Shown: positions 1 through 16,375 of the stretch, one piece after another | Layout: each line of letters begins with the position of its first letter | How positions within the stretch are numbered: the first letter of the stretch is position 1 | DNA from: a virus | IMG/VR virus record: IMGVR_UViG_3300042934_000568 | Span: 1-20,721 of that record | Direction: 5' to 3' (one strand) | Length of the DNA: 20,721 bases | The notes under the pieces: generated by a model | What the model saw: the letters and a program-made list of their open reading frames with translations, nothing else | What the model was told of the DNA's origin: nothing | The model's database searches: none | Position numbers and translations under genes: made by a program

Positions 1-677
1 CGATCACGACCCCGTCGATCCAGAACTACGCGACCTCGCGTACCCTCACGATCGACGCGCTTGCGGACACCACGCAGTCGCTCGTCATCAACAAGGAAGA
101 CGCGATCTCGTTCAAGGTCGACGACGTTGACCGTGTCCAGTCGGCTGGTTCGTTCGAGCCCGTCACCCGTGACGCTGCGAAGGCGCTTGCGGAGAACGCT
201 GAGACCAACCTCATCGCTGACCTGAAGGCGAACGGCACCTCGGCTGGTACCGCTGCGATCACCACGTCCGCACTGGCGTACTCGGCGGTTGTTGCGATCC
301 GTACCGCGCTGGTCAAGGCGAAGGTTCCCTCGAGCGACCGCTACCTTGCGGTTTCGCCCGAGTTCGCGGCTCTCCTCCTCGGTGAGTCGTCGAAGCTGAC
401 CAGCTTTGACCCGGTGGGTGACGAGCCCGTCCGTAACGGTGTCATCGGTCGCATGCTCGGCTTCACGGTTGTGGAGCACCCGCTCCTCACCCACACGTCG
501 AACCGTCCTGCCGCGATCGGCTTCCACGCCCCCTCGGTGGCTTACGTGGGTCAGATCGACAAGGTCGAGGCCGGCCGCATGGAGCTCGCGTTCGCGGACT
601 ACGTGCGTGCCCTGAACATCTACGGCACGAAGGTTCTTCGCGCGACCGCTGTTCAGACGTACCTGCCCGCTGCGTAA
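1..677 (+). CDS. Major capsid protein, C-terminal part (5' end outside window)
   Basis: An open frame enters from the left edge in the frame of position 3 and stops with TAA at 675-677, giving about 224 residues without a start. The sequence has the beta-rich, moderately charged character of an HK97-fold phage coat protein. The segment SLVINKEDAISFKVDDVDRVQS, then a helix rich in Ala and Glu, then YLAVSPEFAALLL and a final LRATAVQTYLPAA, is what I associate with the coat proteins of actinobacterial siphophages. Its place directly before head-tail connector genes agrees. The role is the icosahedral capsid shell. The N-terminal arm and any scaffold region are missing only because of the window border. 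Exact family (P22-coat-like or HK97 gp5-like) is not settled from sequence alone. Confidence 0.85.
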   Translation, partial: ITTPSIQNYATSRTLTIDALADTTQSLVINKEDAISFKVDDVDRVQSAGSFEPVTRDAAKALAENAETNLIADLKANGTSAGTAAITTSALAYSAVVAIRTALVKAKVPSSDRYLAVSPEFAALLLGESSKLTSFDPVGDEPVRNGVIGRMLGFTVVEHPLLTHTSNRPAAIGFHAPSVAYVGQIDKVEAGRMELAFADYVRALNIYGTKVLRATAVQTYLPAA

Positions 678-710
678 GCGGCACTGTCGCTCAACCCGTA
701 GGAGGTAATC

Positions 711-1271
711 GTGGTTGCGTTCACCAACTCTGACGCTGTCGCCGCTCGTCTGAACCGTACTTTCACGAGTGCGGAGGACGAGTGGGTCACCACACTGTTG
801 GTGGACGCTTCCGCGTACCTTCGGTCGGTTATCGGGCAGGACGTTTACCCGACGACTCAGTCGACGTTCACGGCATGGCCGGATGCTGGGCGGGTTGATC
901 TGCCTCAGTATCCGGTCGTGTCCGTGGACGCGGTCGAGCGGGACGCGGTTGCGGTGGACTACACATACCGGCCCGGGTATATCACCGTGTCGTGCGATGA
1001 CCCGCTGGATGTGACGTTCACCTGGGGTGTTGCTACGGCGCCGCCTGTGCTGGTGTCGTTCTCCGCTGTACTCGTGTCGCAGGCGATCCTGGCTGTTGAG
1101 ACGGGGACCGGGCTCACCTTCGGCGGGCTTTCGTCTGTCGCGCTGGATGATTTCCGGGCTGCGTTTGCTGATGGTGGCACCGGGTCGGGGATGGTGCTTC
1201 CGGAGCCTCAGCAGGCTCTCATCCGTCGCCAGTTTGGTCGTGGTGATGTGACGGTGGTGGAGACCCGGTGA
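711..1271 (+). CDS. Head-to-tail adaptor (connector) protein
   Basis: 186 residues with a GTG start preceded by AGGAGGT at 701-707. The N-terminal half (FTNSDAVAARLNRTFTSAEDEWVTTLLVDASAYLRSVIG) is a helical bundle of the kind seen in gp6/gp15-type connector proteins. The middle is beta-rich with LPQYPVVSVDAVERD, a pattern typical of head-tail adaptors (interface, then hydrophobic strand). It lies between the capsid gene and the stopper gene, where adaptors normally sit. It should attach under the portal as the first ring of the neck. Its stop overlaps the next start by 4 bases (GTGA), implying translational coupling. Confidence 0.75.
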   Translation: MVAFTNSDAVAARLNRTFTSAEDEWVTTLLVDASAYLRSVIGQDVYPTTQSTFTAWPDAGRVDLPQYPVVSVDAVERDAVAVDYTYRPGYITVSCDDPLDVTFTWGVATAPPVLVSFSAVLVSQAILAVETGTGLTFGGLSSVALDDFRAAFADGGTGSGMVLPEPQQALIRRQFGRGDVTVVETR

Positions 1272-1654
1272 GCATCCTCGGGCTGGGACGCAACTTCGCT
1301 GAGGCGCGGATGACTGACACCGTGCTCATCACTCGGGAGTCGGAGCCTGTCTTCGATGAGGAGACCGGAACCTACACACCGACAACGGTGACGGTCTACA
1401 ACGGCCCTGCCCGGCTGAAGCTCACCTCAACGGTCGTCGGGTCGGTGGACGCGCAGGGGCAGAACCTTGCAGCGCAGACGCCGCGCCTGGACCTTCCTGT
1501 CGCGACGTCGGGCGGTGTGCAGGTGAACGACTCGGTCGAGATCACGGCTTCTGTGAATGATCCGGCGAGTGTGGGGCTGCGGCTGAACATTGAGGGCGTG
1601 TTCTTCCAGACCGATGCGACCGCGCGACGTTTCCCGGTGGAGGTGCAGTCGTGA
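1268..1654 (+). CDS. Head-to-tail stopper protein
   Basis: 128 residues, GTG start overlapping the adaptor stop. An internal ATG at 1310 (MTDTVLITRESEP) is an alternative start. The motif 'T-D-T-V-x-I-T-R-x-S-E-P-V-F-D-E-E-T-G-T-Y-T' followed by a small beta-barrel with PARLKL and a C-terminal strand pair resembles the stopper / DUF6093-like proteins of actinophages. These form the second neck ring and close the DNA channel before tail attachment. The assignment depends mainly on gene order and overall character. No catalytic residues are expected. The next gene overlaps it by 4 bases. Confidence 0.65.
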   Translation: MSILGLGRNFAEARMTDTVLITRESEPVFDEETGTYTPTTVTVYNGPARLKLTSTVVGSVDAQGQNLAAQTPRLDLPVATSGGVQVNDSVEITASVNDPASVGLRLNIEGVFFQTDATARRFPVEVQS

Positions 1655-2040
1655 CGACCTTTGATTTCTCGGAGCTGTCGAAGCTGGCCGCGGATCTGGG
1701 AGAGATTCCAGCGAAGACACACGCCAACGTCCGGAAGGCCGTTGAGGTGACCGCCCGTCACGTGAAGGACGACTGGCGTGACCCGCTTTCGCAGTCGGAG
1801 ATGATTCCCCGCGGAGCGTTCACCGTCAGTTACGACATTGCGACGGACTCGGAAGGTGTCACGGCTGAGATTGGACCGACCGTGCGTGGCAAGGGTTCGC
1901 ACTGGCTCGGTGGTCTGGTCGGAGCGCTCGAGTACGGCACTCCGACGACACCGCCTACGGGGTTCGGGCACGCCGCATTGCAGAAGAACGAGGACGACTT
2001 TGAGAAGGGTCTCGCTGAGGCCGTGAAGGACATCCTGTGA
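1651..2040 (+). CDS. HK97 gp10-like neck / tail-completion protein
   Basis: 129 residues from a GTG start with a near-perfect Shine-Dalgarno (GGTGGAGGT at 1636-1644). The N-terminus is helical (FSELSKLAADLGEIPAKTHANVRKAVEVTARHVKDDW). The C-terminus carries the family hallmark of EYGT followed by a Pro-rich turn, a hydrophobic helix and a final acidic helix (ALEYGTPTTPP...FEKGLAEAVKDIL). This is the pattern of HK97 gp10-type proteins, which act at the head-tail joining step. It overlaps its neighbours by 4 bases on each side. Confidence 0.7.
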   Translation: MTTFDFSELSKLAADLGEIPAKTHANVRKAVEVTARHVKDDWRDPLSQSEMIPRGAFTVSYDIATDSEGVTAEIGPTVRGKGSHWLGGLVGALEYGTPTTPPTGFGHAALQKNEDDFEKGLAEAVKDIL

Positions 2041-2417
2041 GCGCCGCTAGTGACGCTGCGGTCCTGGCCCGGCTCCGATCAGACGCTCGTCTTGTCAACG
2101 CCGTGTATGAGGGGACCGTCACGACACCCCCGAGCGCCTATGTCTCGGTCTTCTCCGGTATCGGGCGCGACACCTCAGACCGTCTCGCAGGCCCGTCCAA
2201 CGCGAACACCACGACTTACACGATCCACAGCGTGGCGCTAGACATCGCAGGCGCTAAGTCGACGGCCCGCCGCGTCCAGGCCCTACTCACGGACTGGGAA
2301 CCGGTCGAAGGCAAGGGGCGCATGGTCCACGCCGTTTCGCGTGAGCCGCAGCTCGACCGGGAAGCAAACCCGAAGCTCTGGTACCTCGTCGATCAGTACG
2401 ACCTGACCCTCTCATGA
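2037..2417 (+). CDS. Tail terminator protein
   Basis: 126 residues, GTG start overlapping the previous stop. The order is an N-terminal helix (SDAAVLARLRSDARLVNAVYEG), a short beta segment (PSAYVSVFSG), a strand pair with TTYTIHSVALDIA, a helix (AKSTARRVQALLTDWE), and a final strand pair ending WYLVDQYDLTLS. This alpha/beta order is the tail terminator fold (lambda gpU / HK97 gp10-neighbour type), and the position just ahead of the tail tube gene fits. It caps the polymerised tail tube and joins it to the neck. Confidence 0.7.
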   Translation: MSAASDAAVLARLRSDARLVNAVYEGTVTTPPSAYVSVFSGIGRDTSDRLAGPSNANTTTYTIHSVALDIAGAKSTARRVQALLTDWEPVEGKGRMVHAVSREPQLDREANPKLWYLVDQYDLTLS

Positions 2418-2539
2418 TGACGGCGATTGCGGCCCCCGAGCCGGAGGGCGAACGCCACTACGCCACCGCGCTCGGCTCGGCCGCTATCTGTAGCGGCGAC
2501 TACGCCACCGCGCTCGGCTCGTCGGCCTACGCCGACTAG
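2414..2539 (+). CDS. Mini-ORF with two YadA-head-like 14-residue repeats
   Basis: An ATG overlaps the tail-terminator stop (ATGATGA) and opens a 41-codon frame ending TAG at 2537-2539. No Shine-Dalgarno is visible, so expression would rely on coupling to the upstream stop. Residues 16-29 and 30-41 repeat as YATALGSAAICSGD and YATALGSSAYAD. That is the 14-residue period and the A-x-A-[LI]-G-x-x-A signature of YadA/Hep_Hag trimeric head repeats. A much longer version of the same motif is in the fibre gene at 8736-9482. Two repeats are too few for a stable coil of their own, so this may be a remnant of a fibre gene, a small capping peptide, or a decoration element. Its translation is unproven. 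Confidence 0.5.
   Translation: MMTAIAAPEPEGERHYATALGSAAICSGDYATALGSSAYAD
2457..2521 (+). repeat. Direct repeat, 23 bp x 2, 42-bp period
   Basis: Identical 23-bp copies lie at 2457-2479 and 2499-2521, starting ACTACGCCACCGCG. The 42-bp period equals 14 codons and encodes the duplicated YATALGS motif of the small ORF. Nucleotide-level identity suggests a recent duplication or strong constraint. Confidence 0.85.
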
Positions 2540-2618
2540 CCCGAATGACTCCCTCCTTACTCCCTGGAGGGCAACCCAAGGAAGAACCCCGGTTGTCGGG
2601 GAGAAGAAAGGAAAGAAC

Positions 2619-3143
2619 ATGGCAGATGTTGCTGACGTTGTTCCCGCCGCCATTGACGTCAAGGGAAACCTGGTCATCTGGTGGGTTGGGGGCGCTATCG
2701 CCGACCTGACCGCACCGGGCAAGGTGCTCGTCTTCGATGCCGCGACCACGTTCCGGGTGACGCACTCGTTCACCCCGGGCGGTTTCGCTCTCGACGCTGA
2801 CCAGGTGATTGACACGGACTCGCGTCTGGGTCTCACGGTCGACCTGGAAGCCCTCGGTATCCGTACCGACACGCTCGGCATGCTCGAGTACGTCGATTCG
2901 ACCAACGCGTCTTCGGCTGCGGTGGTTCTGAAGCCGGTCGGTTCGGCTACGTCGATCTCGGGGTATTTCGTGATCCGCCGCAATGTGACGAACACGACGG
3001 TCGCGACGGCCGCGCAGAAGGTCTACACGGTCCCCGTGACGCTGGGTACGCAGATCTTCCCCGTCACCCCGGATGGTAAGGCGCTCATCAAGCAGCGTGC
3101 GTCGATCACCGGCCCGATCGTTCACGGCGTTATCGCGGCGTGA
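2619..3143 (+). CDS. Major tail tube protein
   Basis: 174 residues from an ATG preceded by a purine-rich ribosome site (GAAAGGAAAG at 2606-2615). The frame is open upstream to 2427, but that stretch is an Arg/Pro-rich read-through of the repeat ORF and has no suitable start signal. The protein is beta-rich with conserved-looking segments VIWWVGGAIADLTAPGKV, RVTHSFTPGGFALDADQVIDTDSRL and a C-terminal KALIKQRASITGPIVHGVIAA. Size and position, before the tail chaperones and tape measure, fit the tube subunit that polymerises around the tape measure protein. A strong hairpin directly follows it. Confidence 0.75.
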   Translation: MADVADVVPAAIDVKGNLVIWWVGGAIADLTAPGKVLVFDAATTFRVTHSFTPGGFALDADQVIDTDSRLGLTVDLEALGIRTDTLGMLEYVDSTNASSAAVVLKPVGSATSISGYFVIRRNVTNTTVATAAQKVYTVPVTLGTQIFPVTPDGKALIKQRASITGPIVHGVIAA

Positions 3144-3150
3144 TCCATCT

Positions 3151-3187
3151 CCTGACCCTGGGGTTCTCACCGTGCCCCAGGGTCAGG
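3151..3187 (+). terminator. Hairpin terminator after the tail tube gene
   Basis: A perfect 13-bp inverted repeat (CCTGACCCTGGGG at 3151-3163 and its complement at 3175-3187) with an 11-nt loop starts 7 bases after the tail tube stop. Only a weak T-tract (TTCTACC) follows. A partial terminator here would give more tube protein than the downstream chaperones. Confidence 0.75.
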
Positions 3188-3222
3188 TTCTACCCTCCAC
3201 GGTGAAGTAAACGGTGAACAGA

Positions 3223-3795
3223 ATGAACTTCAAGGAACAGTTGGCCGCGGCTCGTGCCGCACGGCCTACCAAGGATGTGGTGGTTGTTCTCGACGGCGCG
3301 GTGTCTGCTGAGCGGGAGCGGCTGGAGAAGGAACTCGCAGCGGTTGACGTGAGCGACACTCGCATGGGTGTTGCGTCGCCCGCGGACGAGATCCAGCGCA
3401 AGCTTGACGAGCTCGCGGAACAGTCCGCCGATTCCCTCCTCACCATCCGTCTCACCCGCCTTCCCGGGCGTGACTGGTCGAACCTGACGTCGAAATGCCC
3501 GGTGCGGCCCGACGTTCCCATTGACCGTCATTACGGGTACAACTACGACGCCGCCTGTGAAGCCGCCGCACGCTACCGGGACACGTCAAACGTGGCGTAC
3601 GGTGCACGGATGGAGGACGGCGAACCCGTCGACATCAGCGACGACGAGTGGGGTGACCTGTTCGACGTCCTGTCTGGTAGCGACATTGGCAAGATCCGTG
3701 ACGCCGTGTGGTCGCTGAACGAGTACGAACCGCAGGAACGACTGAATGCACTGGTAAAAGGCTCCGGGGCAGCGTCGCGCTCCGTCAGCAAGTAG
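3223..3795 (+). CDS. Tail assembly chaperone, short (unshifted) form
   Basis: 190 residues from ATG 3223. A GTG three codons upstream (3214) is equally open, and GGTG at 3213-3216 can act as ribosome site for the ATG. The product is rich in charged helices (MNFKEQLAAARAARPTKDVVVVLDG, AERERLEKELAAVD) and has a helical C-terminal domain (DDEWGDLFDVLSGSDIGKIRDAVWSLN). This matches the gpG-like chaperones that hold the tape measure protein during tail assembly. The 3' end overlaps a second frame (3708-4172), the usual layout for this gene pair. Confidence 0.75.
   Translation: MNFKEQLAAARAARPTKDVVVVLDGAVSAERERLEKELAAVDVSDTRMGVASPADEIQRKLDELAEQSADSLLTIRLTRLPGRDWSNLTSKCPVRPDVPIDRHYGYNYDAACEAAARYRDTSNVAYGARMEDGEPVDISDDEWGDLFDVLSGSDIGKIRDAVWSLNEYEPQERLNALVKGSGAASRSVSK
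3754..3760 (+). other. Probable -1 programmed frameshift site
   Basis: The codons of the first frame read CTG GTA AAA GGC at 3751-3762. The run of four A (3756-3759) lets tRNA-Lys slip back one base from AAA to AAA and continue as AGG CTC CGG in the -1 frame. The window in which both frames are open is 3708-3795, and this is the most slippery stretch I see in it. It is not a canonical X_XXY_YYZ heptamer, so the exact slip point is tentative. Confidence 0.5.
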
Positions 3796-4172
3796 CTTTC
3801 GCCGCGCGCTCCGGGATCGCCCCACGGCGACTCTGGGGGTGGGAGCCACGCACGTTCTACGAGTACGACGACGACGGACGCATGATCTCGTCAGTGGTCG
3901 AACCTGAGTGGGACGAAGACCAGATTGACCTTGTCATCGCGGAACAGATGGTCCGCAACCTGACCGGACCTAACGGCGAGTGGATGCCCGAGGCGACGTC
4001 CGACGCAGCCGACCCGATGAAGTATTCCGGTATGCGTTACGTCGCTAATGGTCCGTTCACGAACTGGGCTGAGAAGGAACGCCTTGACGCGCTTGACGCG
4101 CACCGCAAGGCGATGGGTGAGGGCGCGAACCTGAACGGCGTGTACTTCACCTCCGACAAGTTCGAGTACTAG
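3759..4172 (+). CDS. Tail assembly chaperone, -1 frameshift extension
   Basis: This frame has no good start of its own but continues the upstream chaperone after a -1 shift, ending TAG at 4170-4172. A fused product would be about 316-319 residues (about 137 from this part). The stretch LWGWEPRTFYEYDDDGRMISSVVEPEWDEDQIDLVIAE matches the known C-terminal part of actinophage gpGT-like chaperones: a Trp/Pro-rich turn, an acidic segment, then an E-P-E-W-[DT]-[DE] motif before a helix. The gpT-like part recruits tail tube subunits while the gpG-like part coats the tape measure protein. The stop overlaps the convergent lipoprotein gene by 4 bases. Confidence 0.72.
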   Translation, partial: RLRGSVALRQQVAFAARSGIAPRRLWGWEPRTFYEYDDDGRMISSVVEPEWDEDQIDLVIAEQMVRNLTGPNGEWMPEATSDAADPMKYSGMRYVANGPFTNWAEKERLDALDAHRKAMGEGANLNGVYFTSDKFEY

Positions 4173-4471
4173 AACTCGTCTGCGTACTCGTCGCAATACG
4201 CGACGGATGCGGCGCCGGCGACACGCCCCGCTTCGGCGGCTGTCATCCCGGTCTCTTTGGCGATGCGGATGAACTCGGTCAGCCCTGCCTCGAATCCCCG
4301 GTCCTCGAGGATGTCGCAGACCTGACGGCCCAGTTTCGTCAGGTCTGCGGCGCCCGCGTCGGCTAGCGCCGGCACCTCACGGACCACGGCCACGTAAGCG
4401 TCATCGACGCTGGGCGCTGCACAGCCCGTCAGTAGCAACACAGGTAACAACACGGCGAGGACGCGCTTCAT
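4169..4471 (-). CDS. DUF732-like lipoprotein, lone minus-strand gene (moron)
   Basis: 100 residues from ATG 4471. A TTG at 4492 would add 7 residues before the signal peptide and is less likely. The N-terminus is a bacterial lipoprotein signal: positive start (MKR), hydrophobic core (VLAVLLPVLLL) and lipobox LTGC with Cys at residue 17. The mature part has two Cys in the contexts R-Q-V-C-D and A-Y-C-D and the helical spacing typical of DUF732, a domain of secreted and lipid-anchored mycobacterial and actinobacterial proteins. The protein should be anchored on the outer face of the cell membrane. It lies antisense between the chaperones and the tape measure gene and has its own -10 element. 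Expression from the prophage and a role in excluding other phages are plausible but inferred. Confidence 0.75.
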   Translation of the reverse strand: MKRVLAVLLPVLLLTGCAAPSVDDAYVAVVREVPALADAGAADLTKLGRQVCDILEDRGFEAGLTEFIRIAKETGMTAAEAGRVAGAASVAYCDEYADEF

Positions 4472-4478
4472 GGCGCTG

Positions 4479-4484
4479 ACTCTA
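4479..4484 (-). promoter_or_regulatory. -10 element of a probable leaderless promoter for the lipoprotein
   Basis: On the minus strand TAGAGT (TANNNT) ends 7 bases before the ATG at 4471, so transcription would begin at or next to the start codon. No good -35 is seen and there is no Shine-Dalgarno in front of the ATG. Both are common in leaderless actinobacterial promoters. Confidence 0.45.
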
Positions 4485-4515
4485 CAACTCAAGACCTATC
4501 TAGCGGAGGTGTATC

Positions 4516-7251
4516 TTGGCCGACCGCCAGACCAAAGTGACCTTGATTGCGGCCGTGAATGGCTACATCACCGACATGAAGCGGGCGCAGGACGCGACCG
4601 AGAAGGTTGGCGACGAAGCGGCTAAGGCCGCGGCGCAGCTTGAGAAGCAGCATCAGGCGATGTCTGAGGTCGGCGCTGGGGTTGCTGCGATCGGTGCGGT
4701 TGCTGCGGTGGCGTTCGGTATCGCTGTGTCGAAGTTCGCTGAGTTCGACCAGGCCATGAGCAACGTTCAGGCGGCGACGCAGGAGTCTGCCGAGAACATG
4801 GGCAAGCTGCGTGAGGCGGCGCTCGAGGCGGGTGCTTCGACGGTGTTCTCTGCCACTGAGGCGGCGAACGCGATTGAGGAACTGGGTAAGGCTGGCCTGA
4901 CGACTGAGCAGATCCTTGGTGGCGGTCTGACGGGTGCGTTGGATCTTGCTGCGGCGGGTCAGCTTGAGGTTGCTGAGGCTGCGGGTATCGCTGCGATCGC
5001 GTTGAAGCAGTTCAACCTTGAGGGCGAAGACATCCCCCATGTGGCCGATCTGCTCGCGGCTGGTGCGGGTAAGGCTGTCGGTGACGTTGAGGATCTGTCG
5101 GCCGCGCTGGGTCAGGTTGGTCTGGTCGCGAACGGTGCGGGTCAGTCCATCGAGGACACCACGGGCACGCTGGCTGCGTTCGCTGACGCGGGACTACTGG
5201 GCTCGGATGCGGGTACGTCGCTGAAGGCTGCGATCATCGCGCTCCAGGCGCCCACCGACAAGGCCCGCGGGATCATGGAGGAGTACAACCTTTCCTTCTA
5301 TGACACCAACGGGCAGATGCTCGCGTTCGATGAGATCGCCGGCCAGTTGGACGAGAACCTGGGTTCACTCACGGATGAGACCCGCAACGCGGCTCTGGCC
5401 CAGATTTTCGGCAACGATGCGCTGCGTGTCGCGAACGTCCTGTACGACGAGGGTGCTGATGGCATCCGGAAGTACATCGACCAGACGAACGACTCGGGGT
5501 ATGCGGCGAAGGTTGCCGCGGACCGGTTGAACAACCTGACCGGTGACGTGGAGAAGCTGGGCGGCGCGATCGACACTGCCCTCATCAAGTCTGGTTCGGG
5601 TGTCAACGATCTTCTCCGAGGCGTGACGCAGGGTGCGACGGGGATTGTCGACGCTATCGGCAGCATCCCCGAGCCTGTTCTGGGTGTCGCCACTCAGATC
5701 ACGGGGATTGTCGCCGCTGTCGGCCTTGTTGGTGGTGCGGCTCTGCTCGCGGTTCCGAAGATCGCACAGTTCAAGCTGGCGCTCTCCACGCTCAACATCT
5801 CGGGTGCGTCAGCGGCTCGCGGTATCGGTCTGGCGACCGGTGCTCTGGCTCTCGCTGGTACTGCGTTCTCGATTTGGGCGTCACGGCAGGCTGAGGCTAC
5901 CGCGACGGCTTCGGAGTTCGAGCAGTCCCTGGACGAGACGACCGGTGCTGTCACTGACTACACGCGGGAACTGGTTGCGAAGAAGCTTGCTGAGGCGGGC
6001 GCTTTCGACGGCGCGAAGAACGCTGGCATCTCGCAGAAGGAACTGACTGAGGCGATCCTGGAGGGCGGCGACGCTGTCGAGGATTTGCGGCAGAAGCTGT
6101 ACGACTACGCCAACGGGAACCCGTTTGACCCGTCGATCGCTAACTCGGTGAACACGGTCAACGCGCTGTCTGACGGGCTCGAGCGTGCCGATAAGAACCT
6201 TGAGGACCAGGCTGCTGCTGCTGACGTGTCGGCGGATAAGACGACGGATGCGGCGACTGCGTACCAGGACGCTGCGGACAAGGCTGAGGAACTTCAGACG
6301 AACCTCCGCGAGCTCATCGACACCATCAATGAGGCGAACGGTATCGGGCAGGACGCGGTTTCCACGAACGCGGCCTACCAGTCGGCGCTTGCTGGGATCA
6401 GTGATGAGGTGGACCGCCAGAAGGAAGCGTTCATCGACTTGCAGAAGAAGGCGTTCCTCGATGCCAACGGCACCCTGGAGGGTTTCGTTGGGACGCTGGA
6501 CGGTTTCATCCTGACGTTGGATGAGACCACTGAGGCTGGTTCGGCTAACGCGGCGATGCTCGCGGATGTTGCTAGCAAGGCTCAGGATGCCGCCCTCGCG
6601 CAGTTCGAGGTCGATTCGGCGACGTTGGGTGCTGACAAGGCGACCGAGATCTATCTCGACACTCTCGCGAAGCAGAGGCAGGCGTTCATCGACTCCGCCA
6701 TCGAGGCGGGTTACAACGCCGACGAGGTTCAGGCGCTCGCGGACAAGGTGTTTGCACTCCCCGACGAGAAGGCAATGAAGGTTGTCGCCGACACGGCGGC
6801 GGCTGCTACCACGATCGACAACTTCATGACCCGGTATGGGACGTTGCGGGGCACGATCGTGTATCGCGCGACTCGCGAAGGGTCGATGAGTGATGGTGCC
6901 GCTACGGGCGGGTTTGCGAACGGTGGAGAGATCCCCGGGACGCCGTCGCGGAAGGACAACGTCCTTATCCACGCGGCCACTGGCGAGTTCGTTGTCAACA
7001 CGGAGGCGGCTCAGCGGAACAAGCGTCTGCTGCACTACATCAACAACGGTGGTCGTATCCGCGGGTATGCGGATGGTGGTGAGGTTCAGCCTCAGTACGC
7101 ACCCAGCACGCCTAGTTGGGGTTCCGGTGGGGGCGCTGTGGCGAGCGTCGATGTGACGCAGATCATTCAGCCTGCGCCAGGGATGAGCGAGTCGCAGATC
7201 GCTCGTATCGCGGCGGAGCGGATGGCGTTTGCGGCTAGGGGGAACGGATGA
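4516..7251 (+). CDS. Tail tape measure protein
   Basis: 911 residues, the largest gene of the window, as usual for this function. The TTG start is chosen because GGAGGT (4505-4510) lies 5 bases before it. The N-terminal third is a TP901-type tape measure core (FDQAMSNVQAATQESAENMGKL, GLTTEQI, DLAAAGQLEVAEAA). A hydrophobic stretch lies at about residues 53-72, with two more at about 388-415 and 434-455 that may insert into the host membrane during DNA entry. The rest is long Ala/Glu/Asp-rich coiled coil. The C-terminus holds a Gly-rich GGFANGGEIPG...NGGRIRGYADGGEV section common in these proteins. At about 0.15 nm per residue the tail would be near 137 nm. Its stop overlaps the next ATG. Confidence 0.95.
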   Translation: MADRQTKVTLIAAVNGYITDMKRAQDATEKVGDEAAKAAAQLEKQHQAMSEVGAGVAAIGAVAAVAFGIAVSKFAEFDQAMSNVQAATQESAENMGKLREAALEAGASTVFSATEAANAIEELGKAGLTTEQILGGGLTGALDLAAAGQLEVAEAAGIAAIALKQFNLEGEDIPHVADLLAAGAGKAVGDVEDLSAALGQVGLVANGAGQSIEDTTGTLAAFADAGLLGSDAGTSLKAAIIALQAPTDKARGIMEEYNLSFYDTNGQMLAFDEIAGQLDENLGSLTDETRNAALAQIFGNDALRVANVLYDEGADGIRKYIDQTNDSGYAAKVAADRLNNLTGDVEKLGGAIDTALIKSGSGVNDLLRGVTQGATGIVDAIGSIPEPVLGVATQITGIVAAVGLVGGAALLAVPKIAQFKLALSTLNISGASAARGIGLATGALALAGTAFSIWASRQAEATATASEFEQSLDETTGAVTDYTRELVAKKLAEAGAFDGAKNAGISQKELTEAILEGGDAVEDLRQKLYDYANGNPFDPSIANSVNTVNALSDGLERADKNLEDQAAAADVSADKTTDAATAYQDAADKAEELQTNLRELIDTINEANGIGQDAVSTNAAYQSALAGISDEVDRQKEAFIDLQKKAFLDANGTLEGFVGTLDGFILTLDETTEAGSANAAMLADVASKAQDAALAQFEVDSATLGADKATEIYLDTLAKQRQAFIDSAIEAGYNADEVQALADKVFALPDEKAMKVVADTAAAATTIDNFMTRYGTLRGTIVYRATREGSMSDGAATGGFANGGEIPGTPSRKDNVLIHAATGEFVVNTEAAQRNKRLLHYINNGGRIRGYADGGEVQPQYAPSTPSWGSGGGAVASVDVTQIIQPAPGMSESQIARIAAERMAFAARGNG

Positions 7252-7676
7252 ACGCGACTCTTGGCGGGCTGACGTTCGTTGGTGGCGAGGGTGCGGCGAC
7301 GTACACGATCTTCCGCGATCGCGGTCTTACGGGCTGGTTCGAGGGCGTGGAGATGCGTCGTGAGATCATCGCCCGCCCGAATGGCAACGGTGACTTCCCC
7401 ACCCCTGGCCACCTCGGGCCTCGGCTCATCACCCTCTCGGGGCTGATTCTGACGGCGGACGACCCTGCGGCGTTCGAGGTTGCGATGAAGGCGCTCGAGG
7501 ATCTGCTTGCCGACGGCAGCATGGGCACGTTCTCGGTGGAGCAGGCGACGGGCACTTATACGGCGGAGGTTGGCCGTCTGGGTTCCCCGGAAATCATCAT
7601 CGAGGTTTACGGGTCACGGGCACGGTACCGGTTGCAGTTGTGGGCGCCTGATCCGACGAAGGAGCTGCTTCCGTGA
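7248..7676 (+). CDS. Minor tail protein, distal-tail (Dit)-like
   Basis: 142 residues, ATG within the tape measure stop (ATGA), ribosome site AGGGGGAAC directly upstream. The sequence is beta-rich, with YTIFRDRGLTGWFEGVEMRREIIARPNGNGDFP, then GPRLITLSGLILTADDPAAFEVAMKALEDLLADG, then a closing strand with YRLQLWAPDP. The 'arginine-pair, N-G-x-G-D, R-x-I-x-L-x-G' order matches N-terminal Dit domains, which form the ring that joins the tail tube to the tip. It comes directly after the tape measure gene, the usual place for Dit. Confidence 0.7.
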   Translation: MNATLGGLTFVGGEGAATYTIFRDRGLTGWFEGVEMRREIIARPNGNGDFPTPGHLGPRLITLSGLILTADDPAAFEVAMKALEDLLADGSMGTFSVEQATGTYTAEVGRLGSPEIIIEVYGSRARYRLQLWAPDPTKELLP

Positions 7677-8746
7677 CGTGGTCCTTCAACATCTACAACA
7701 CGCAGAGTGGCGCGCATGTATTGACGCTCCCTGAGCCGAGTGCAGGGGAGTGGAACACGCGCCTGTCGGGCAAGGGTCGCGGCCGGCACACGTTCCCGCT
7801 CTACGGGGCGGGGGTTTCGCGGGCTGACATTCGGGAATTCACCACCGGCAACAAGCACACGATCACTCAGGAGTGGGGTACACATGTTGTTTACGCGGGT
7901 GTGATTCAGCGGCCGACGTACACGAAGAAGACGCGAACGCTCGAGGTGGCATCGGGCGAGCTCCGGGGTGCGTATCTCAATGACCGCATGTTGTTTGGTG
8001 TTGACGCGTATCTCCCGAATGATCCGATCTTGACGGTTACCGGTCGGTCTCACTCAGGTGCTGCGCGGGCAGTCCTGGGGCTTGCAACGTCCACGCCTGG
8101 GTTCGCACTACCGATTGACCTTCCTGCTGATGGTGCGGGCGGGTTCTCGGCTAACTGGCTTCATAGCGAACGGTTGAAGGTTGAGGATCATCTTCAGCAG
8201 GTTGAGGATGACGGTTGCGAGATTTATCTGCGCCCGTACAAGTCGGGCTCTGCGTTGCGGTTTGAGACGGTCGTGGGGTCGCCTGGGGTTGAGATTGGTT
8301 CCTCGACTGCGATTGATCTGGCGGGTGACGATAGTCCGGTTCTGGATCTTCAGGTTTACACCGACTATGTGAAGCAGATGACGGGTGTGCTCGCGTTTGG
8401 CACGGGCGGTTCGTCGGCGCCGACAGCGTACGCGCCACTGTCGGGGTATCCGGGTGGGATTGGTATTCGTGACACGTGGATGACGTTCAGCGACATCTCG
8501 GACGTGACCCGGTTGCAGGACGCGGCCAACAACACTTACGCGTTCCTTCATGTTCCCACTGAGGTGATGTCGTTCGGGTTGCATGTGTACCCGGGCGGGC
8601 CGGCGTTTGCTGCACCGGGTCGGCTGCTTCAGGTGACGTCTTCGGGTGATGAGTACATTCTTGACGGCCCGTACACGAAGCGTGTGGTTGGGCTCCGTGG
8701 GGATCTTGGTTTGACGGTGACCCCGGAGGTGCAGGATGCCAGTTGA
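7673..8746 (+). CDS. Minor tail protein, tail-tip hub candidate (Tal-like position)
   Basis: 357 residues, GTG start with AAGGAG about 9 bases upstream. The protein is beta-rich: WSFNIYNTQSGAHVLTLPEPSAGEWNTRLSGKGRGRHTFPL, then a variable middle (EDHLQQVEDDGCEIYLRPYKSGSALRFETVVGSP), then a C-terminal part with YILDGPYTKRVVGLRGDLGLTVTPEV. This resembles the second minor tail protein of actinophage tails, placed where the gp27/Tal-like hub normally lies. I see no protease or lysozyme motif. A hub role is inferred from position. Confidence 0.6.
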   Translation: MTWSFNIYNTQSGAHVLTLPEPSAGEWNTRLSGKGRGRHTFPLYGAGVSRADIREFTTGNKHTITQEWGTHVVYAGVIQRPTYTKKTRTLEVASGELRGAYLNDRMLFGVDAYLPNDPILTVTGRSHSGAARAVLGLATSTPGFALPIDLPADGAGGFSANWLHSERLKVEDHLQQVEDDGCEIYLRPYKSGSALRFETVVGSPGVEIGSSTAIDLAGDDSPVLDLQVYTDYVKQMTGVLAFGTGGSSAPTAYAPLSGYPGGIGIRDTWMTFSDISDVTRLQDAANNTYAFLHVPTEVMSFGLHVYPGGPAFAAPGRLLQVTSSGDEYILDGPYTKRVVGLRGDLGLTVTPEVQDAS

Positions 8747-9482
8747 TGACCCGTCTGATTTGAATGTTGGGGACCGGCAACTTCGGAAGCGTGTTGAACG
8801 TCTCGAAGCTGGCACTGGTGGCGGGGACAGTACTCACCCGGGCGCTGGCGGCGATTCCATCCTCCTGGGTACCGATGGTCTGGCGGACGGGTATGCGTCG
8901 GTTGCGATCGGGTTTGAGGCGAAGGCTTCTCCGATCACGGACACGGATGCGGATGAGGCTGTCGCTGTTGGGACCGCGTCGACTGCGGACGGGTTCGGGG
9001 CGATCGCTTTGGGTGGCCGGTCTTACGCGCAGTATGAGAATGCGATGGCGCTGGGTTGGTTGGCGTTCTCGGGGCACGCGTTCTCGACGGCGATTGGGCA
9101 TCAGGCGGTGACGTCGGCGACGCATCAGATCATGTTGGGTCGCGCGGAGGACACTGTGCGGGTGCCTGGGAACCTGACTGTGGTGGGGACGTTTTCGAAC
9201 CCGTCTGCCCGTCACTTGAAGTGTGACATCGTGCCGGCGCCGCGCCTCGTTTCGGTGTTCCCTGAGGTGTTCGAGTGGGAGTACATCGAAGGGGACGGTC
9301 GGCGGCATATCGGCCCGATGGCGGATGACCTTGTGGGGACGGACGCTGAGCGGTTCCTTGTCGTCGATGACGCGGGTGAGCCTGCGGGTATCGACAAGCT
9401 CGGGTTGCACACGGCACAGATCGCCGCACTGCTCGCACGTATCGAACGTCTGGAAGAGGAACTGAGGAGACGCGATGGCTGA
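8736..9482 (+). CDS. Tail fibre with YadA-like head repeats and S74 intramolecular chaperone
   Basis: 248 residues, ATG after GGAGGTGCAGG, overlapping the previous gene by 11 bases. Residues 8-25 form a short charged coiled coil. Residues about 50-125 carry repeated A-x-A-[IVL]-G motifs (SVAIG, AVAVG, AIALG, AMALG, STAIG) of the trimeric YadA/Hep_Hag type. Residues about 154-248 form an S74-type chaperone. They include the Ser157-x4-Lys162 dyad in NPSARHLKCDI (the usual Asp after Ser is Ala here), HIGPMADDL in place of the common H-x-G-[FL]-[IM]-A-[QD]-[DE]-[VL] box, and a C-terminal coiled coil (LHTAQIAALLARIERLEEELRRR). The family folds the trimeric fibre and then cuts itself off, probably before Ser157. 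Confidence 0.85.
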   Translation: MPVDDPSDLNVGDRQLRKRVERLEAGTGGGDSTHPGAGGDSILLGTDGLADGYASVAIGFEAKASPITDTDADEAVAVGTASTADGFGAIALGGRSYAQYENAMALGWLAFSGHAFSTAIGHQAVTSATHQIMLGRAEDTVRVPGNLTVVGTFSNPSARHLKCDIVPAPRLVSVFPEVFEWEYIEGDGRRHIGPMADDLVGTDAERFLVVDDAGEPAGIDKLGLHTAQIAALLARIERLEEELRRRDG

Positions 9483-9828
9483 ACTGGCCCAACTGCCGGG
9501 AGTGCTGGATCTCCGCATCTACCGGGGTGATGACTCGAACTTTCAGGTGACGATCACGGACACGGAGTCGGGTGACCCTCTGGTGTTGCCGACGACGGGG
9601 TGGCGTGCACAGGTGCGCATCGACACGGCCGCTACCAGCGAGATCCTGTTTTCGTTGACGGTGGACGCGTCGGATGCTGCGACGGGTGTCATCTCCCTGT
9701 CGATTGTGGGTGCGGATACGGCGGAGCTTGAGGGTCCGGTGTTCTGGGATTTGGAGAACACGGATCTGGACCGCACGTTCCTGGCGGGGAAGATTCGACT
9801 GTCGGGGCAGGTGAGCCGCGATGAGTGA
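9475..9828 (+). CDS. Small tail protein with an immunoglobulin-like beta domain
   Basis: 117 residues, ATG after GAGGAGACGCG, overlapping the fibre gene by 8 bases. It begins [39 protein letters not shown], the pattern of phage tail or baseplate BppU-type N-terminal domains. It continues with a [26 protein letters not shown] beta sandwich and ends [28 protein letters not shown]. Such proteins normally precede or are joined to collagen-like fibre proteins, as here. It is probably a structural piece that links fibres to the tail tip. Confidence 0.6.
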
Positions 9829-10351
9829 TATCACCGTTTCGGTTACCGCTCAGCCGGCCATCGAGGTGGGTGTTACGCCGGCTGGTGCTACGGGGCCGCA
9901 GGGGCCTGCTGGTGCGGCTGGCGCTACCGGTCCTGCTGGTGAAACAGGCGCGACGGGTGCCGCTGGGCCAACCGGGGAAACTGGACCGCAGGGGCCGCAG
10001 GGTGACCCTGGCGCCACCGGGGCTACGGGTGCGACTGGTGCAACGGGAGCGACTGGCGCGACCGGTCCCGGTGTGGCGACTGGTGGCACGACCGGTCAGG
10101 TGCTAGCGAAAGTGTCTGGCACCGACTACGACACTGAGTGGATCGACCCGCCCGAGGGCGGTGGCGGCGGTGCAGCCCAAGAGGTTCGTCACTCGAACGA
10201 TGGCACTTACGACTACACCGGCAACGCCGCGAACGGCACCGCTGAGGGTTCGTCCGGTTGGACTGTGACCCGCATTACCCTCACATCTCCGCCTGTCGTT
10301 GAGACGGGCTCTGGAACGTGGACCGGTCGCGCCGGTCTCAGCTACTCGTAG
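9821..10351 (+). CDS. Collagen-like tail fibre protein
   Basis: 176 residues, ATG after AGGTGAG, overlapping the previous stop by 8 bases. Residues 22-84 are about 21 uninterrupted Gly-X-Y triplets, mostly GAT, GPA, GET and GPQ, and should form a trimeric collagen helix. The region directly after ([25 protein letters not shown]) is a motif I recognise from many phage tail fibres, where it follows collagen repeats and caps the stalk. The C-terminal 55 residues are Ser/Thr/Gly-rich and probably form a beta domain. Role: flexible fibre of the tail tip, perhaps in host contact. Confidence 0.85.
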
Positions 10352-10360
10352 GAGGCAACT

Positions 10361-11566
10361 GTGGCAACCCGATACGCAACAAAGTCCGGCGTGTGGTCCG
10401 ATGTGACGGTGTGGGACGGTGGAGTCAGCCTGCCCGCGTCTATCGATGACGTTCACGCGAACACGTTCACCGTCGACATCGACCAGAACATCACGGTGAA
10501 CTCGCTCCGAACCACGTCGGGATCCGGGATCACGGTCGGCGGAAGTTTCCGCGTTGCCTCCGGGAGCCCCGTCATCAACGTCACAGCGGGACTGATCGGC
10601 GCGACACACAACGGTGTGAACTCGACGGCCATCCTGAACATCACGGGCGGAACCCCGACCGTCAACGCCAACGTGACCGGAGGCACGTCGAGCGGACGGC
10701 ACGGCGTACAGATCACAGGCGGCACATCAACGATCACCGGAACCATCACAGGGGGAACCGGTGCAGTCTCCACCTACGGCGTACATATTCCCTCTGGGAC
10801 ACCCACTGTCACGATCAACGGCGATGTCGTCGGCATCACCGCGTCATCCAGCTCCAACAACTTCGGGGTCAACATCGCAGCCAACGCGACGGTGACCGTC
10901 AACGGCAACCTCAGCACCAGCGCCGGCCCGAACGCCAGCGCCGCCGTGAGTTGCACGGGGACAACAGCGGAAGTAGTCATCAACGGCGACATCACGGGGG
11001 GGTCCGCCCAACTGACCGCCGTTGGCTTCATCGGGTCGGGAGCGTCGGCGCAGTACACAATCACGGGTAACATCTACGGCGCAGTCGGATATGGCGTCTC
11101 CGTCACCGCAGGCTACCTCAGCCTCGACGGATGCAGCCTGTACCCCTCCGCGACGGGCGTACCCGCAGTCAACAGCACCGGAACCTGCCGATTCCACGGA
11201 AACGCCTACTTCTACACGACGACGTCGACAGGGCAGGGCTACTGCCCGATCGCCGGACGGTGGCAGGCATGGGGCGGGCAGGAACTCATCTTCCACATGT
11301 TCGAGACTGACGGCTGGCCGTTTACCTATTCGGGTGACGTTCTGCAGATCACGAACTATGGCAGCAACCTTCCCGCCGCTGAGGACGTGCGAGTCGGAGT
11401 CGACTACGGCGGCGGGTCGGCACTCACAGGAACTCTCGCAGTCCCTTCACCTGCCTCCGTCGCAGCGGGCATCCCCACGGATGACACGGTGGGCACGGCG
11501 GCGGTGTCTCTCGCGGACGTGCTCGCTGGGACGGGTGCACAGATCGCGGCGGCAACGTCGGGCTGA
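10361..11566 (+). CDS. Beta-helix-like tail fibre / spike protein
   Basis: 401 residues, GTG start with AGGAGG 9 bases before it. The body is a ladder of 8-20-residue segments ending in T-x-N-G-[DN] or I-T-G-G-T (NITGGTPTVNANVTGGTSSGRHGVQITGGTS, GVHIPSGTPTVTINGD, GVNIAANATVTVNGN). That is the rhythm of a right-handed beta-helix as in pectate-lyase-like spikes. The C-terminal 60 residues (EDVRVGVDYGGGSALTGTLAVPSPASVAAGIPTDD) match a widespread phage tail C-terminal motif. No catalytic residues of a known depolymerase could be picked out, so enzyme activity is open. Codon style is unlike the neighbouring tail genes: more C- and A-ending codons and fewer GGT/GCG. This suggests recent exchange. 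Confidence 0.65.
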   Translation: MATRYATKSGVWSDVTVWDGGVSLPASIDDVHANTFTVDIDQNITVNSLRTTSGSGITVGGSFRVASGSPVINVTAGLIGATHNGVNSTAILNITGGTPTVNANVTGGTSSGRHGVQITGGTSTITGTITGGTGAVSTYGVHIPSGTPTVTINGDVVGITASSSSNNFGVNIAANATVTVNGNLSTSAGPNASAAVSCTGTTAEVVINGDITGGSAQLTAVGFIGSGASAQYTITGNIYGAVGYGVSVTAGYLSLDGCSLYPSATGVPAVNSTGTCRFHGNAYFYTTTSTGQGYCPIAGRWQAWGGQELIFHMFETDGWPFTYSGDVLQITNYGSNLPAAEDVRVGVDYGGGSALTGTLAVPSPASVAAGIPTDDTVGTAAVSLADVLAGTGAQIAAATSG

Positions 11567-11630
11567 GAATCTATCGGCTCGCTGTATCAGGGGTTGGTGT
11601 ATCTGCTCGTAAGGGTCATGGGCGAACATC

Positions 11631-11659
11631 TTGTGAACCGTAACGACAACCAGTACACT
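11631..11659 (+). promoter_or_regulatory. Sigma70-type promoter for the mini-cassette, leaderless
   Basis: TTGTGA (11631-11636), a 17-bp spacer and TACACT (11654-11659). The ATG at 11666 begins 7 bases after the last base of the -10, so the transcript would start at the start codon. Confidence 0.6.
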
Positions 11660-11665
11660 TCACGC

Positions 11666-11818
11666 ATGGAGACCACAATGGACGTCGACACCAGCATCTT
11701 CCCCGCACGCTGGCTCCACATCGACGACTTCACCGTCTGCGACAGGCACGAAGTGTGCACCAGGGACACGTTCGTCCGCGGCGGGCGACCGGAGCACCCC
11801 GATAACCTGACCGTGTGA
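11666..11818 (+). CDS. 50-aa protein of unknown function, first gene of a self-contained cassette
   Basis: The start is set by the promoter that ends 6 bases before it. The frame is also open upstream but lacks a ribosome site there. The product is 50 residues with no signal peptide or membrane segment. It has a compact central part (IFPARWLHIDDFTVCDRHEVC) with two Cys seven residues apart (C-x6-C) and an acidic, His-rich character. I do not recognise it. Its stop overlaps the GTG of the HTH gene by 4 bases, so the two form one unit. Confidence 0.5.
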   Translation: METTMDVDTSIFPARWLHIDDFTVCDRHEVCTRDTFVRGGRPEHPDNLTV

Positions 11819-12006: not shown

Positions 12007-12018
12007 ACACGTAGGCCC

Positions 12019-12060
12019 GACGAAGCCCCCGGAACCGTATTGGTCCGGGGGTTTCGTCTT
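12019..12060 (+). terminator. Strong hairpin terminator of the mini-cassette
   Basis: Stem GACGAAGCCCCCGGA (12019-12033) pairs with TCCGGGGGTTTCGTC (12044-12058) over 15 bp including one G-T pair, with a 10-nt loop that can close partly. TT follows. It separates the cassette from the endolysin gene. Confidence 0.8.
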
Positions 12061-12081
12061 GCCCCAGGAAAGCGGGACCAC

Positions 12082-13991: not shown

Positions 13992-14000
13992 GAGAACAAC

Positions 14001-14308: not shown

Positions 14309-14315
14309 ACACAAA

Positions 14316-14353: not shown

Positions 14354-14376
14354 GTTTCGTCGTTTCAGGTGCGCCT

Positions 14377-14396: not shown

Positions 14397-14397
14397 C

Positions 14398-14620: not shown

Positions 14621-14628
14621 TCTGCGTT

Positions 14629-14911: not shown

Positions 14912-15141
14912 TACTCACTCCTGTCGGCGGTGGGGCGGGTCGGAACCTCTCGTGAGTCCACCCATAGGTCAAAGGCGCCGCGCAGACGCTCGATGGTGAC
15001 GCGGGCGACGAACGCATCCTCACGCGTCGAGTACGGGCCGCTGACAGTGCGCGCGGCCTCCGACCCGAAAGCGCCGCCGCTCAGAAGCCACCACTCAGTC
15101 TTCGTCGCGGCGGTCGAGGTCTGTTCGGTAGACTTATCCAT
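14911..15141 (-). CDS. 76-aa protein downstream of integrase
   Basis: ATG 15141 is chosen over an upstream ATG at 15156 because AAGGGA sits 6 bases before it. Its start lies 8 bases inside the integrase 3' end. The protein has a Ser/Thr/Glu-rich N-terminus (MDKSTEQTSTAATKTEWW), a small Gly-rich part (LLSGGAFGSEAARTVSGPYSTREDAFVARVTIERL), and ends DSREVPTRPTADRSE. I do not recognise the family. The T-E-W-W-L-L-S-G-G start of the fold resembles small one-domain phage proteins that are common beside integrases. Confidence 0.6.
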   Translation of the reverse strand: MDKSTEQTSTAATKTEWWLLSGGAFGSEAARTVSGPYSTREDAFVARVTIERLRGAFDLWVDSREVPTRPTADRSE

Positions 15142-16375
15142 GTTCGATCCCTTCATGATCGGACTCTTGCCCTCGACCCGTCGCAATCGGGTCGGGGGCT
15201 TCTTCACTCACATTAACAGCCACCACAGACACAGGGGACAGCAACTTCTGTACCGTCGACGCTGACGCCGGCCCACGCGATGCCTGCTCCACGTAATGCC
15301 GCAGATTCCCGAACCCCGTATGCCCGAGCTGGTCACGCGCCGCCTCAACACCCAGATCCTCGGCAAGCAGCGTCGCCACAGCCTTACGGAACGCCCCAGG
15401 AGTCACCGCTGCGTACCCGCTCCCCTCTAGAGCGGCCCGCCAATCCCTGCGAAGGTTGTCAGGCCACCTCGGCGTCCCGGCCGCAGAGGGAAACACCAGA
15501 TCCGAGTACGCGCCCGCCGCACGTGCCACGAGCATCGGAACAACGAACACAGGCAACTCGAGCTCGCGGCGGGACTTGTCCGTCTTCAGCGTTTCCTTCA
15601 CGACAAGCTTCCCGTCAATGCTCCTCGCAACGGTCCCGTTGATCGTGACCGTGGGCGGCATCGAGTCGAAGTTGAAGTCGGACCACCGCAACGCCAGAAC
15701 CTCGGACGTGCGGGCACCCGTCGCCGCATACATGTCCATCGTGTCCCGCAAGCTCCCGTTCCGCGGACGCTGATACCGGTCAAACCCGGCATCCCACACC
15801 TCCAACAAGCCACGAATCGCCGCGATGTCATCCGCACGCAACGCCTTCACCTTCGGCTTCGTCCGCGTCACCGCCTTAGTCTCCGGAACCGGGTTCTGAT
15901 CCACCGCACCCGCATACACCGCATGGGCCATCATGTGCTTCAACACGATCCGAACCGTCCGCGCCTGCCCCGGGGTCTTCTTCGCCACAGCCTGGATGTA
16001 GCGGTTCAGTTTCGCGGGGGTAGCCTCCCCAACGCGGACACCCGCCAAGCCCCGCAGAACCGCCTTCAGCGCCTCCTGGTAGGTGAGTTTCGTCCCGTCC
16101 GCCAAGTTGCTGTCGGCCAGCATCTCCACTTTCCACGCGTCAGCCAACTGCTGGAGGGTGGAGTCGCGGGTGATCGCTTCACCGGCCGGCGCCAGACGAT
16201 CCCGCAGCGCCTCCTTGAGCGCGTTGACCGCCAGAGCAGACGTCCGCCCCGTCCGCATCATCCGCCGCGTCTCACCATCACTGTCGCGATAGTGTGCGCT
16301 GGCCGCTGGCTTCCCGTTGTGCGTGAACTTACGGATCGTGCCGTAAGTCTCGAGGGGGAGCGGGGGCCTAGCCAT
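15134..16375 (-). CDS. int: Tyrosine integrase
   Basis: 413 residues, ATG 16375, ribosome site TAGGA about 6 bases ahead inside the end of the HTH gene. The N-terminus (residues 1-45) is an arm-binding domain, about 73-170 the core-binding SAM-like domain, and 180-365 the catalytic domain. Box I is Arg222 (YAATGARTSEVLALRW), the beta-hairpin Lys is Lys264 (LKTDKSRRELEL), Arg330 is in FRKAVATLL, His352 in LGHTG, and Tyr361 in LRHYVEQ is the nucleophile. The first His of the usual H-x-x-R is Gly327 here (TPGAFR). The enzyme should recombine attP at the tRNA copy 0.6 kb away with the host tRNA gene. Confidence 0.95.
   Translation of the reverse strand: MARPPLPLETYGTIRKFTHNGKPAASAHYRDSDGETRRMMRTGRTSALAVNALKEALRDRLAPAGEAITRDSTLQQLADAWKVEMLADSNLADGTKLTYQEALKAVLRGLAGVRVGEATPAKLNRYIQAVAKKTPGQARTVRIVLKHMMAHAVYAGAVDQNPVPETKAVTRTKPKVKALRADDIAAIRGLLEVWDAGFDRYQRPRNGSLRDTMDMYAATGARTSEVLALRWSDFNFDSMPPTVTINGTVARSIDGKLVVKETLKTDKSRRELELPVFVVPMLVARAAGAYSDLVFPSAAGTPRWPDNLRRDWRAALEGSGYAAVTPGAFRKAVATLLAEDLGVEAARDQLGHTGFGNLRHYVEQASRGPASASTVQKLLSPVSVVAVNVSEEAPDPIATGRGQESDHEGIEHG

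What the first reader, a model, noticed from the sequence alone, without database searches (positions are those of the whole stretch)
4169..4516. Antisense lipoprotein moron directly beside the tape measure gene, possible superinfection exclusion
A DUF732-like lipoprotein with its own -10 element is transcribed away from the tape measure start. Known phage lipoproteins such as Ltp of Streptococcus phage TP-J34 sit on the outer membrane face, bind tape measure proteins of incoming phages and stop DNA entry. The placement here invites the same idea for actinophages. The function is inference; the lipobox and orientation are visible.
Basis: partly seen in the sequence, partly recalled or inferred. 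Interest (0 to 1): 0.7.

Follow-up and report, generated by a model that had tools for sequence, protein, structure and literature searches.

The report
Antisense membrane-protein slot beside tape measure
A temperate phage carries a small backward-facing surface-lipoprotein gene squeezed in just before the gene that sets its tail length, and relatives across actinobacterial phages fill the same spot with unrelated membrane proteins driven by the same type of promoter, which suggests a dedicated slot for prophage genes that probably keep competing phages out.

Summary
Window 4169-4471 (-) encodes a 100-aa DUF732 lipoprotein under strong purifying selection, antisense between the tail-assembly-chaperone pair and the tape measure gene (TMP). 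All eleven intact relatives keep an invariant TAGAGT 6-7 nt before the ATG, even where the DNA upstream is unrelated. This is a leaderless, -10-only actinobacterial promoter.

The wider result was not in the finding. The chaperone-TMP junction is a recurrent "reverse slot". In 136 distinct TMP loci, antisense ORFs with a lipobox or membrane helix plus a leaderless -10 number 56 in the 120 nt before TMP (16 kb searched), against 15 in 903 kb elsewhere. They belong to several unrelated families (DUF732 lipoproteins, another lipoprotein, several small membrane-protein types). The five sequenced isolates with slot genes that I examined are temperate. Gordonia phage Jablanski has an annotated lipoprotein there. 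HK97's exclusion protein gp15, which acts through TMP, occupies the same junction on the other strand.

Superinfection exclusion is therefore the best guess, but it is untested. The protein is not Ltp-family, and I found no covariation with TMP. One announcement already notes reverse genes here in Gordonia cluster DN. I judge it a new variant of a known kind (prophage moron, probable exclusion).

The parts
4169..4471 (-). DUF732 lipoprotein gene (100 aa), lipobox LLTGC (Cys17), mature domain with Cys52 and Cys93 invariant in the 12 aligned sequences
   Evidence: AlphaFold model mean pLDDT 86, helical, matches DUF732 proteins of other actinophages in BFVD
4479..4484 (-). -10 element TAGAGT, 7 nt before the ATG, no Shine-Dalgarno: predicted leaderless promoter with start at or next to the A of ATG (4471)
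   Evidence: invariant in 11 relatives; TANNNT 6-7 nt before ATG in 45 of 47 distinct slot promoters, 0 of 47 with SD-like sequence, no -35
4169..4172 (.). palindromic CTAG that supplies the stop codons of both convergent genes (chaperone frame 2 on +, lipoprotein on -)
   Evidence: sequence; same in all 12 relatives; Jablanski also has CTAG
3214..3795 (+). tail assembly chaperone, first frame (assigned by position and overlap)
   Evidence: no Pfam, PHROG or NCBIfam family at a meaningful E-value; assigned by position between tail tube and TMP and by an overlapping second frame, as in the annotated relatives L081-L083
3708..4172 (+). tail assembly chaperone, second frame, probably reached by programmed frameshift
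   Evidence: overlapping ORF; annotated j2 chaperone in the same place in Footloose, Seahorse, Bridgette, TripleJ, Jablanski
4516..7251 (+). tape measure protein gene; its start lies 44 nt from the lipoprotein ATG
   Evidence: PhageMin_Tail E 3.7e-48, tape measure PHROGs
15134..16375 (-). tyrosine integrase; marks the phage as temperate
   Evidence: Phage_integrase E 5e-11; HTH gene next to it at 16382-16600 (-)

Best explanation
It is a prophage-expressed moron in a conserved 'reverse slot' between the tail assembly chaperone and TMP genes of temperate actinobacterial siphophages. SHOWN from sequence: antisense gene, lipobox, purifying selection, leaderless -10-only promoter, recurrent replacement by unrelated membrane proteins, loss in some close relatives. 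INFERRED: host sigma-A RNA polymerase transcribes it in the lysogen while the tail operon is silent; the protein is exported and lipid-anchored on the outer face of the cytoplasmic membrane. INFERRED, less certain: there it blocks genome entry of incoming siphophages at the membrane-crossing step that TMP helps with, as HK97 gp15 and TP-J34 Ltp do. In the lytic cycle the tail operon reads through the slot, and exclusion at the entry step would not hurt assembly of the phage's own virions, so slot and TMP can travel together as a cassette.
For: Same place and orientation in 12 viral loci from two metagenomes. Strong purifying selection. Invariant TAGAGT-CAGCGCC-ATG even where upstream DNA is unrelated. 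Survey of 167 TMP loci: 72 antisense membrane/lipoprotein ORFs with a leaderless -10 in the 250 bp before TMP, 0-4 in any other 250-bp bin; after dereplication 56 in 16.3 kb against 15 in 903 kb, Fisher p 1e-34 for the promoter among antisense membrane ORFs. At least 8 blast-separated groups of proteins. Dispensable: L013 keeps only residues 34-100 without start or promoter; L026 and L038, TMP 94-97% identical, have no slot gene. Isolates with slot genes are temperate: Footloose, TripleJ, Bridgette, Seahorse, Jablanski. HK97 gp15 sits in the same junction and excludes by blocking injection; hybrids carrying the HK022 tail tube and TMP escape (PMC10883804). TANNNT without -35, and leaderless mRNAs, are typical of mycobacteria (PMC3898074).
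Against: No transcription or exclusion data. LIPO distances do not correlate with TMP distances in 11 close relatives (rho -0.13 to 0.13). No defence-family match (PADLOC). Some slot genes are soluble rather than membrane proteins: Periwinkle gp17, the DUF4177-like ORF in L050. DUF732 lipoproteins are also host genes (Microbacterium chromosome), so a host-physiology role is possible.
Confidence: 0.5

Rival explanations
1. Lysogenic conversion without exclusion: the slot proteins alter the lysogen's envelope (fitness, adhesion, stress, mimicry of host DUF732 lipoproteins) and the position beside TMP is only a safe landing site in the late operon.
For: DUF732 is a host lipoprotein family, with a copy in a Microbacterium chromosome. 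Slot contents are unrelated to each other. No covariation with TMP.
Against: Such morons would be expected at many junctions, but in these loci the signature is concentrated at this one. The nearest studied precedent in this junction, HK97 gp15, is an exclusion protein.
Confidence: 0.27
2. The promoter matters, not the protein: antisense transcription from the slot keeps the late tail operon silent in the lysogen, or tunes TMP expression, and the ORF is a passenger.
For: Fully convergent layout with a 4-bp overlap and no terminator found. The -10 is the most constant element across unrelated slot genes.
Against: The protein has dN/dS near 0.01-0.15. Unrelated slot contents nearly always encode membrane or lipid-anchored proteins in the survey, though the survey selected for that. 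Many related phages have no slot gene and a tight chaperone-TMP junction.
Confidence: 0.08
3. A lytic-phase envelope protein (lysis timing, spanin- or holin-like helper, or exclusion during lytic growth) expressed early from a host-type promoter.
For: Weak PHROG spanin hits limited to the signal peptide region; small two-helix proteins resemble holin accessories.
Against: Lysis genes lie elsewhere in the window (endolysin 12040-13683). The slot genes examined in isolates are in temperate phages. They are antisense to the late operon.
Confidence: 0.1

Closest known systems
Escherichia phage HK97 gp15 moron (superinfection exclusion)
   Same: Exactly between the frameshifted tail assembly chaperone and TMP genes; small membrane-associated protein; temperate phage; exclusion overcome by swapping tail tube and TMP (PMC10883804)
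   Different: gp15 is on the same strand as the tail operon with a terminator behind it, has an N-terminal membrane helix and no lipobox, and the host is Gram-negative; no sequence relation seen
Ltp of Streptococcus phage TP-J34
   Same: Phage lipoprotein on the cell surface; exclusion of siphophages; TMP is the reported target (PMC3952083, PMC11480721)
   Different: No Ltp-family match; ltp lies next to the integrase gene in the lysogeny module; here DUF732 domain and TMP-adjacent antisense slot
Gordonia phage Jablanski gp17 lipoprotein (slot gene)
   Same: Antisense lipoprotein gene between chaperone and TMP, CTAG at the stop overlap, TAGGAT 6 nt before ATG, temperate phage
   Different: Unrelated 201-aa protein (weak DUF4352); TMP only about 36% identical over 68% of the query
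Reverse-transcribed genes of Gordonia cluster DN phages (Periwinkle gp17-19)
   Same: The same junction, reverse orientation, reported for all cluster DN phages (PMC9476921)
   Different: Periwinkle gp17 looks soluble, gp18-19 may not be real genes; no promoter of the slot type seen
Tab of Pseudomonas phage JBD26
   Same: Prophage-expressed small moron aimed at TMP of competitors (PMC10884400)
   Different: Blocks tail assembly, lies between terminase genes, needs an anti-Tab protein

Membership tests
DUF732 (PF05305) | Match to the Pfam model above its curated cut-off | tested here: met
   32.6 bits against 22.4, residues 23-94; model resembles DUF732 proteins of other phages, Foldseek probability 1.00 but best E 2e-3
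Bacterial lipoprotein | Signal peptide ending in a lipobox with invariant Cys | tested here: met
   MKRVLAVLLPVLLLTGC; L14-T15-G16-C17 invariant in 12 sequences; LPAM_1 18.4 bits, slightly under its cut-off of 20
Ltp-type superinfection exclusion lipoproteins | Sequence match to the Ltp family | tested here: not met
   No Ltp model among Pfam hits at E up to 0.1
Ltp-type superinfection exclusion lipoproteins | Two-repeat Ltp fold | tested here: inconclusive
   Foldseek and VIA found no clear PDB match; absence from the list is not exclusion
Ltp-type superinfection exclusion lipoproteins | Protein blocks DNA injection and binds TMP | not testable with these tools
   needs phage challenge and binding assays
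Moron (sensu Juhala 2000) | Own promoter, independent of the late operon | tested here: met
   Invariant leaderless -10; activity not measured
Moron (sensu Juhala 2000) | Own terminator | tested here: not met
   No terminator-like site at the gene end; 4-bp convergent overlap
Moron (sensu Juhala 2000) | Extra gene, absent from close relatives | tested here: met
   L013 remnant; L026 and L038 lack it
HK97 gp15-type exclusion moron | Located between tail chaperone and TMP genes | tested here: met
HK97 gp15-type exclusion moron | Same-strand gene for a membrane-helix protein | tested here: not met
   Opposite strand, lipoprotein

The most novel reading that the evidence does not exclude
Temperate actinobacterial siphophages share a dedicated, swappable lysogeny-expression slot embedded antisense in the late operon at the chaperone-TMP junction: a leaderless -10 promoter fused to exchangeable small envelope proteins, most of them exclusion factors that are inherited together with the TMP they act on.
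Probability: 0.4. Interest if true: 0.8.

Novelty: new variant of a known kind. Interest (0 to 1): 0.62.

Why it matters
If true, one genome position and one promoter signature would let anyone pick out candidate exclusion proteins from thousands of actinobacteriophage genomes, where they are now filed as hypothetical or membrane proteins. It would join HK97 gp15 and the actinophages in one positional rule (exclusion gene next to its tape measure gene) and make directly testable whether exclusion specificity is inherited with TMP. It also bears on the choice of phages for actinobacterial hosts, where prophages block infection.

Tried and rejected
1) Ltp homology: no Pfam match; fold searches in the PDB gave nothing clear, which is not exclusion. 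2) TMP-lipoprotein coevolution: distance correlations near zero in 11 close relatives; high in 14 but equally high for the chaperone, so uninformative. 3) Sigma-70 scan with a -35 found no promoter; the motif is -10 only. 4) INPHARED tblastn with the window protein: no hit; with the L074 homologue only weak Streptomyces DUF732 proteins elsewhere in the genomes. 5) Lipoprotein alignment against bacterial genomes: no hit. The TMP query then found prophages in Microbacteriaceae, Arthrobacter, Cellulomonas and others; four of ten have an antisense membrane ORF in the slot. 6) I considered the ORF a chance open frame opposite a coding gene: rejected by codon-position bias and because no + strand gene overlaps it. 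7) PADLOC: nothing. 8) Two survey hits are probably not slot genes as called (L081 long frame 'family 11', where the annotated gene is gp15; L161 'family 12'); they do not affect the counts materially.
Full report
WHAT IS THERE. The window is a 20,721-base virus record: a late head-tail-lysis operon on the + strand and a tyrosine integrase on the - strand at 15134-16375 with an HTH gene beside it, so a temperate siphophage fragment. Between the overlapping chaperone frames (3214-3795 and 3708-4172) and the tape measure gene TMP (4516-7251) lies a minus-strand ORF, 4169-4471, 100 aa. It matches DUF732 (E 1.1e-7, above the curated cut-off) and has an invariant lipobox LLTGC. The AlphaFold model is helical with mean pLDDT 86 and resembles DUF732 proteins of other actinophages (Foldseek probability 1.00, best E 2e-3). 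Its stop codon and that of the chaperone share the palindrome CTAG.

IS IT REAL. Twelve relatives were found in viral contigs, all from two metagenomes, all in the same place and orientation. Against the window, dN is 0.005-0.10 and dS 0.34-0.79 for the eleven intact close ones, with differences by codon position such as 2/0/21. No + strand gene overlaps the ORF, so this is selection on the lipoprotein itself. The block TAGAGT-CAGCGCC-ATG is invariant in all of them except for one missing base in L011, including L005, L006 and L011 where the DNA further upstream is unrelated. L005 and L011 have an HNH endonuclease gene inserted between TMP and the lipoprotein (Pfam HNH E 2e-9 and 5e-9). L013 has lost the N-terminal third, start codon and promoter next to what looks like the 3' end of that HNH gene. 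L026 and L038 carry 94-97% identical TMP and no such gene. It is therefore dispensable, a moron-like gene.

THE PROMOTER. There is no Shine-Dalgarno and no -35. In mycobacteria TANNNT without a -35 is the standard promoter, and about a quarter of genes are leaderless (PMC3898074). I infer that transcription starts at or next to the A of ATG (4471).

THE REVERSE SLOT. TMP relatives were fetched from viral contigs with three TMP queries together with isolates. In every locus I listed antisense ORFs of 45-200 aa that have a lipobox or a membrane helix and a TANNNT 5-9 nt before an ATG or GTG. Of 167 loci, 72 have one in the 250 bp before TMP; every other 250-bp bin from -3000 to +3000 has 0-4. 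After removing duplicates (136 loci), 56 hits start within 120 nt of TMP (16.3 kb searched) against 15 elsewhere (903 kb). Among antisense membrane ORFs the promoter is present in 55 of 83 in the slot and 18 of 380 elsewhere, Fisher p 1e-34 (loci are related, so the p-value overstates independence). Although 5-9 nt was allowed, the spacer is 6 or 7 nt in 45 of 47 distinct upstream regions, none has an SD, and no -35 signal is seen. The 59 distinct proteins fall into several blast-separated groups: DUF732 lipoproteins; L037, a different lipoprotein that lacks DUF732 and is linked to them only through its signal peptide; a 21-member group of small membrane proteins that includes Bridgette and TripleJ; and several further small membrane-protein types, including the Footloose-like MKWSA type. 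So the position and the promoter type persist while the protein is exchanged.

NAMED PHAGES. Antisense genes in this junction are annotated as hypothetical or membrane protein in Microbacterium phage Footloose and Arthrobacter phages Seahorse, Bridgette, TripleJ and Hestia. Gordonia phage Jablanski has an antisense gene annotated lipoprotein there, with TAGGAT 6 nt before its ATG. Footloose, Seahorse, Bridgette, TripleJ and Jablanski carry integrase and HTH or repressor genes. The slot is empty in Microbacterium phage Ajin, a Mycobacterium abscessus prophage, Arthrobacter phage Wollypog and Bifidobacterium phage Bbif-1. Among bacterial genomes the TMP query found prophages in Microbacterium, Frigoribacterium, Herbiconiux, Cryobacterium, Subtercola, Arthrobacter, Cellulomonas and one Corynebacterium-like record; four of the ten have an antisense membrane ORF in the slot.

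HOW IT PROBABLY WORKS. HK97 gp15, a 62-aa membrane protein, lies precisely between the chaperone and TMP genes of HK97. It blocks DNA injection, and hybrids with the HK022 tail tube and TMP genes escape (PMC10883804). Ltp of TP-J34 is a lipoprotein whose reported target is TMP (PMC3952083, PMC11480721). By position, cell location and temperate context, exclusion of incoming siphophages at the membrane is the best-supported guess. A membrane-stage block would spare the phage's own assembly, unlike Tab of JBD26, which acts in tail assembly and needs an anti-Tab protein (PMC10884400). Shown: gene, lipobox, selection, promoter signature, slot. Inferred: lysogenic expression, surface location. Guessed: exclusion through TMP.

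WHAT SPEAKS AGAINST. Lipoprotein and TMP distances do not covary among 11 close relatives. Hosts have their own DUF732 lipoproteins, so an envelope function remains possible. A few slot genes are soluble (Periwinkle gp17; L050). No family in PADLOC matches.

NOVELTY. One genome announcement states that all cluster DN Gordonia phages have at least one reverse gene between chaperone and TMP (PMC9476921), without function or promoter. In the ten literature searches made I found no description of the wider slot, its promoter or its exchange of unrelated proteins. The library is open-access only, so a description may exist elsewhere.

Noticed in passing
L005 4206-4890, L011 4206-4890, L081 (Footloose gp16): HNH endonuclease genes sit in the same chaperone-TMP junction on the TMP strand, between the antisense gene and TMP; L013 and L006 look like scars of their loss.
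   Followed up: partly
L026 and L027 (one contig, IMGVR_UViG_3300042934_000247): The same contig gave two loci with identical TMP upstream regions (contig 8205-17395 and 1-7217), suggesting a tandem duplication or an assembly artefact.
   Followed up: no
L002-L013, all late genes: Extreme mosaicism within two metagenomes: neighbouring genes vary from 29% to 100% identity to the window, e.g. 3-677 (31-100%) and 7673-8746 (29-77%).
   Followed up: no
upstream of slot genes: window 4485-4492, L043, L082, L083: A string like CTATTGAGTTGT recurs just upstream of slot promoters of otherwise unrelated loci; on the + strand it lies just before the TMP ribosome-binding site.
   Followed up: no
window 12040-13683: Endolysin that combines M23 peptidase, peptidoglycan-binding and Amidase_2 domains in one protein.
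   Followed up: no
L218 1111-1707 (Periwinkle gp19): The annotated reverse gene gp19 has a composition and frame that look like a spurious ORF.
   Followed up: no
L206 (Microbacterium sp. VKM Ac-2923 chromosome): A host DUF732 lipoprotein among ordinary chromosomal genes, in a strain that also carries a TMP 75% identical to that of the window.
   Followed up: partly
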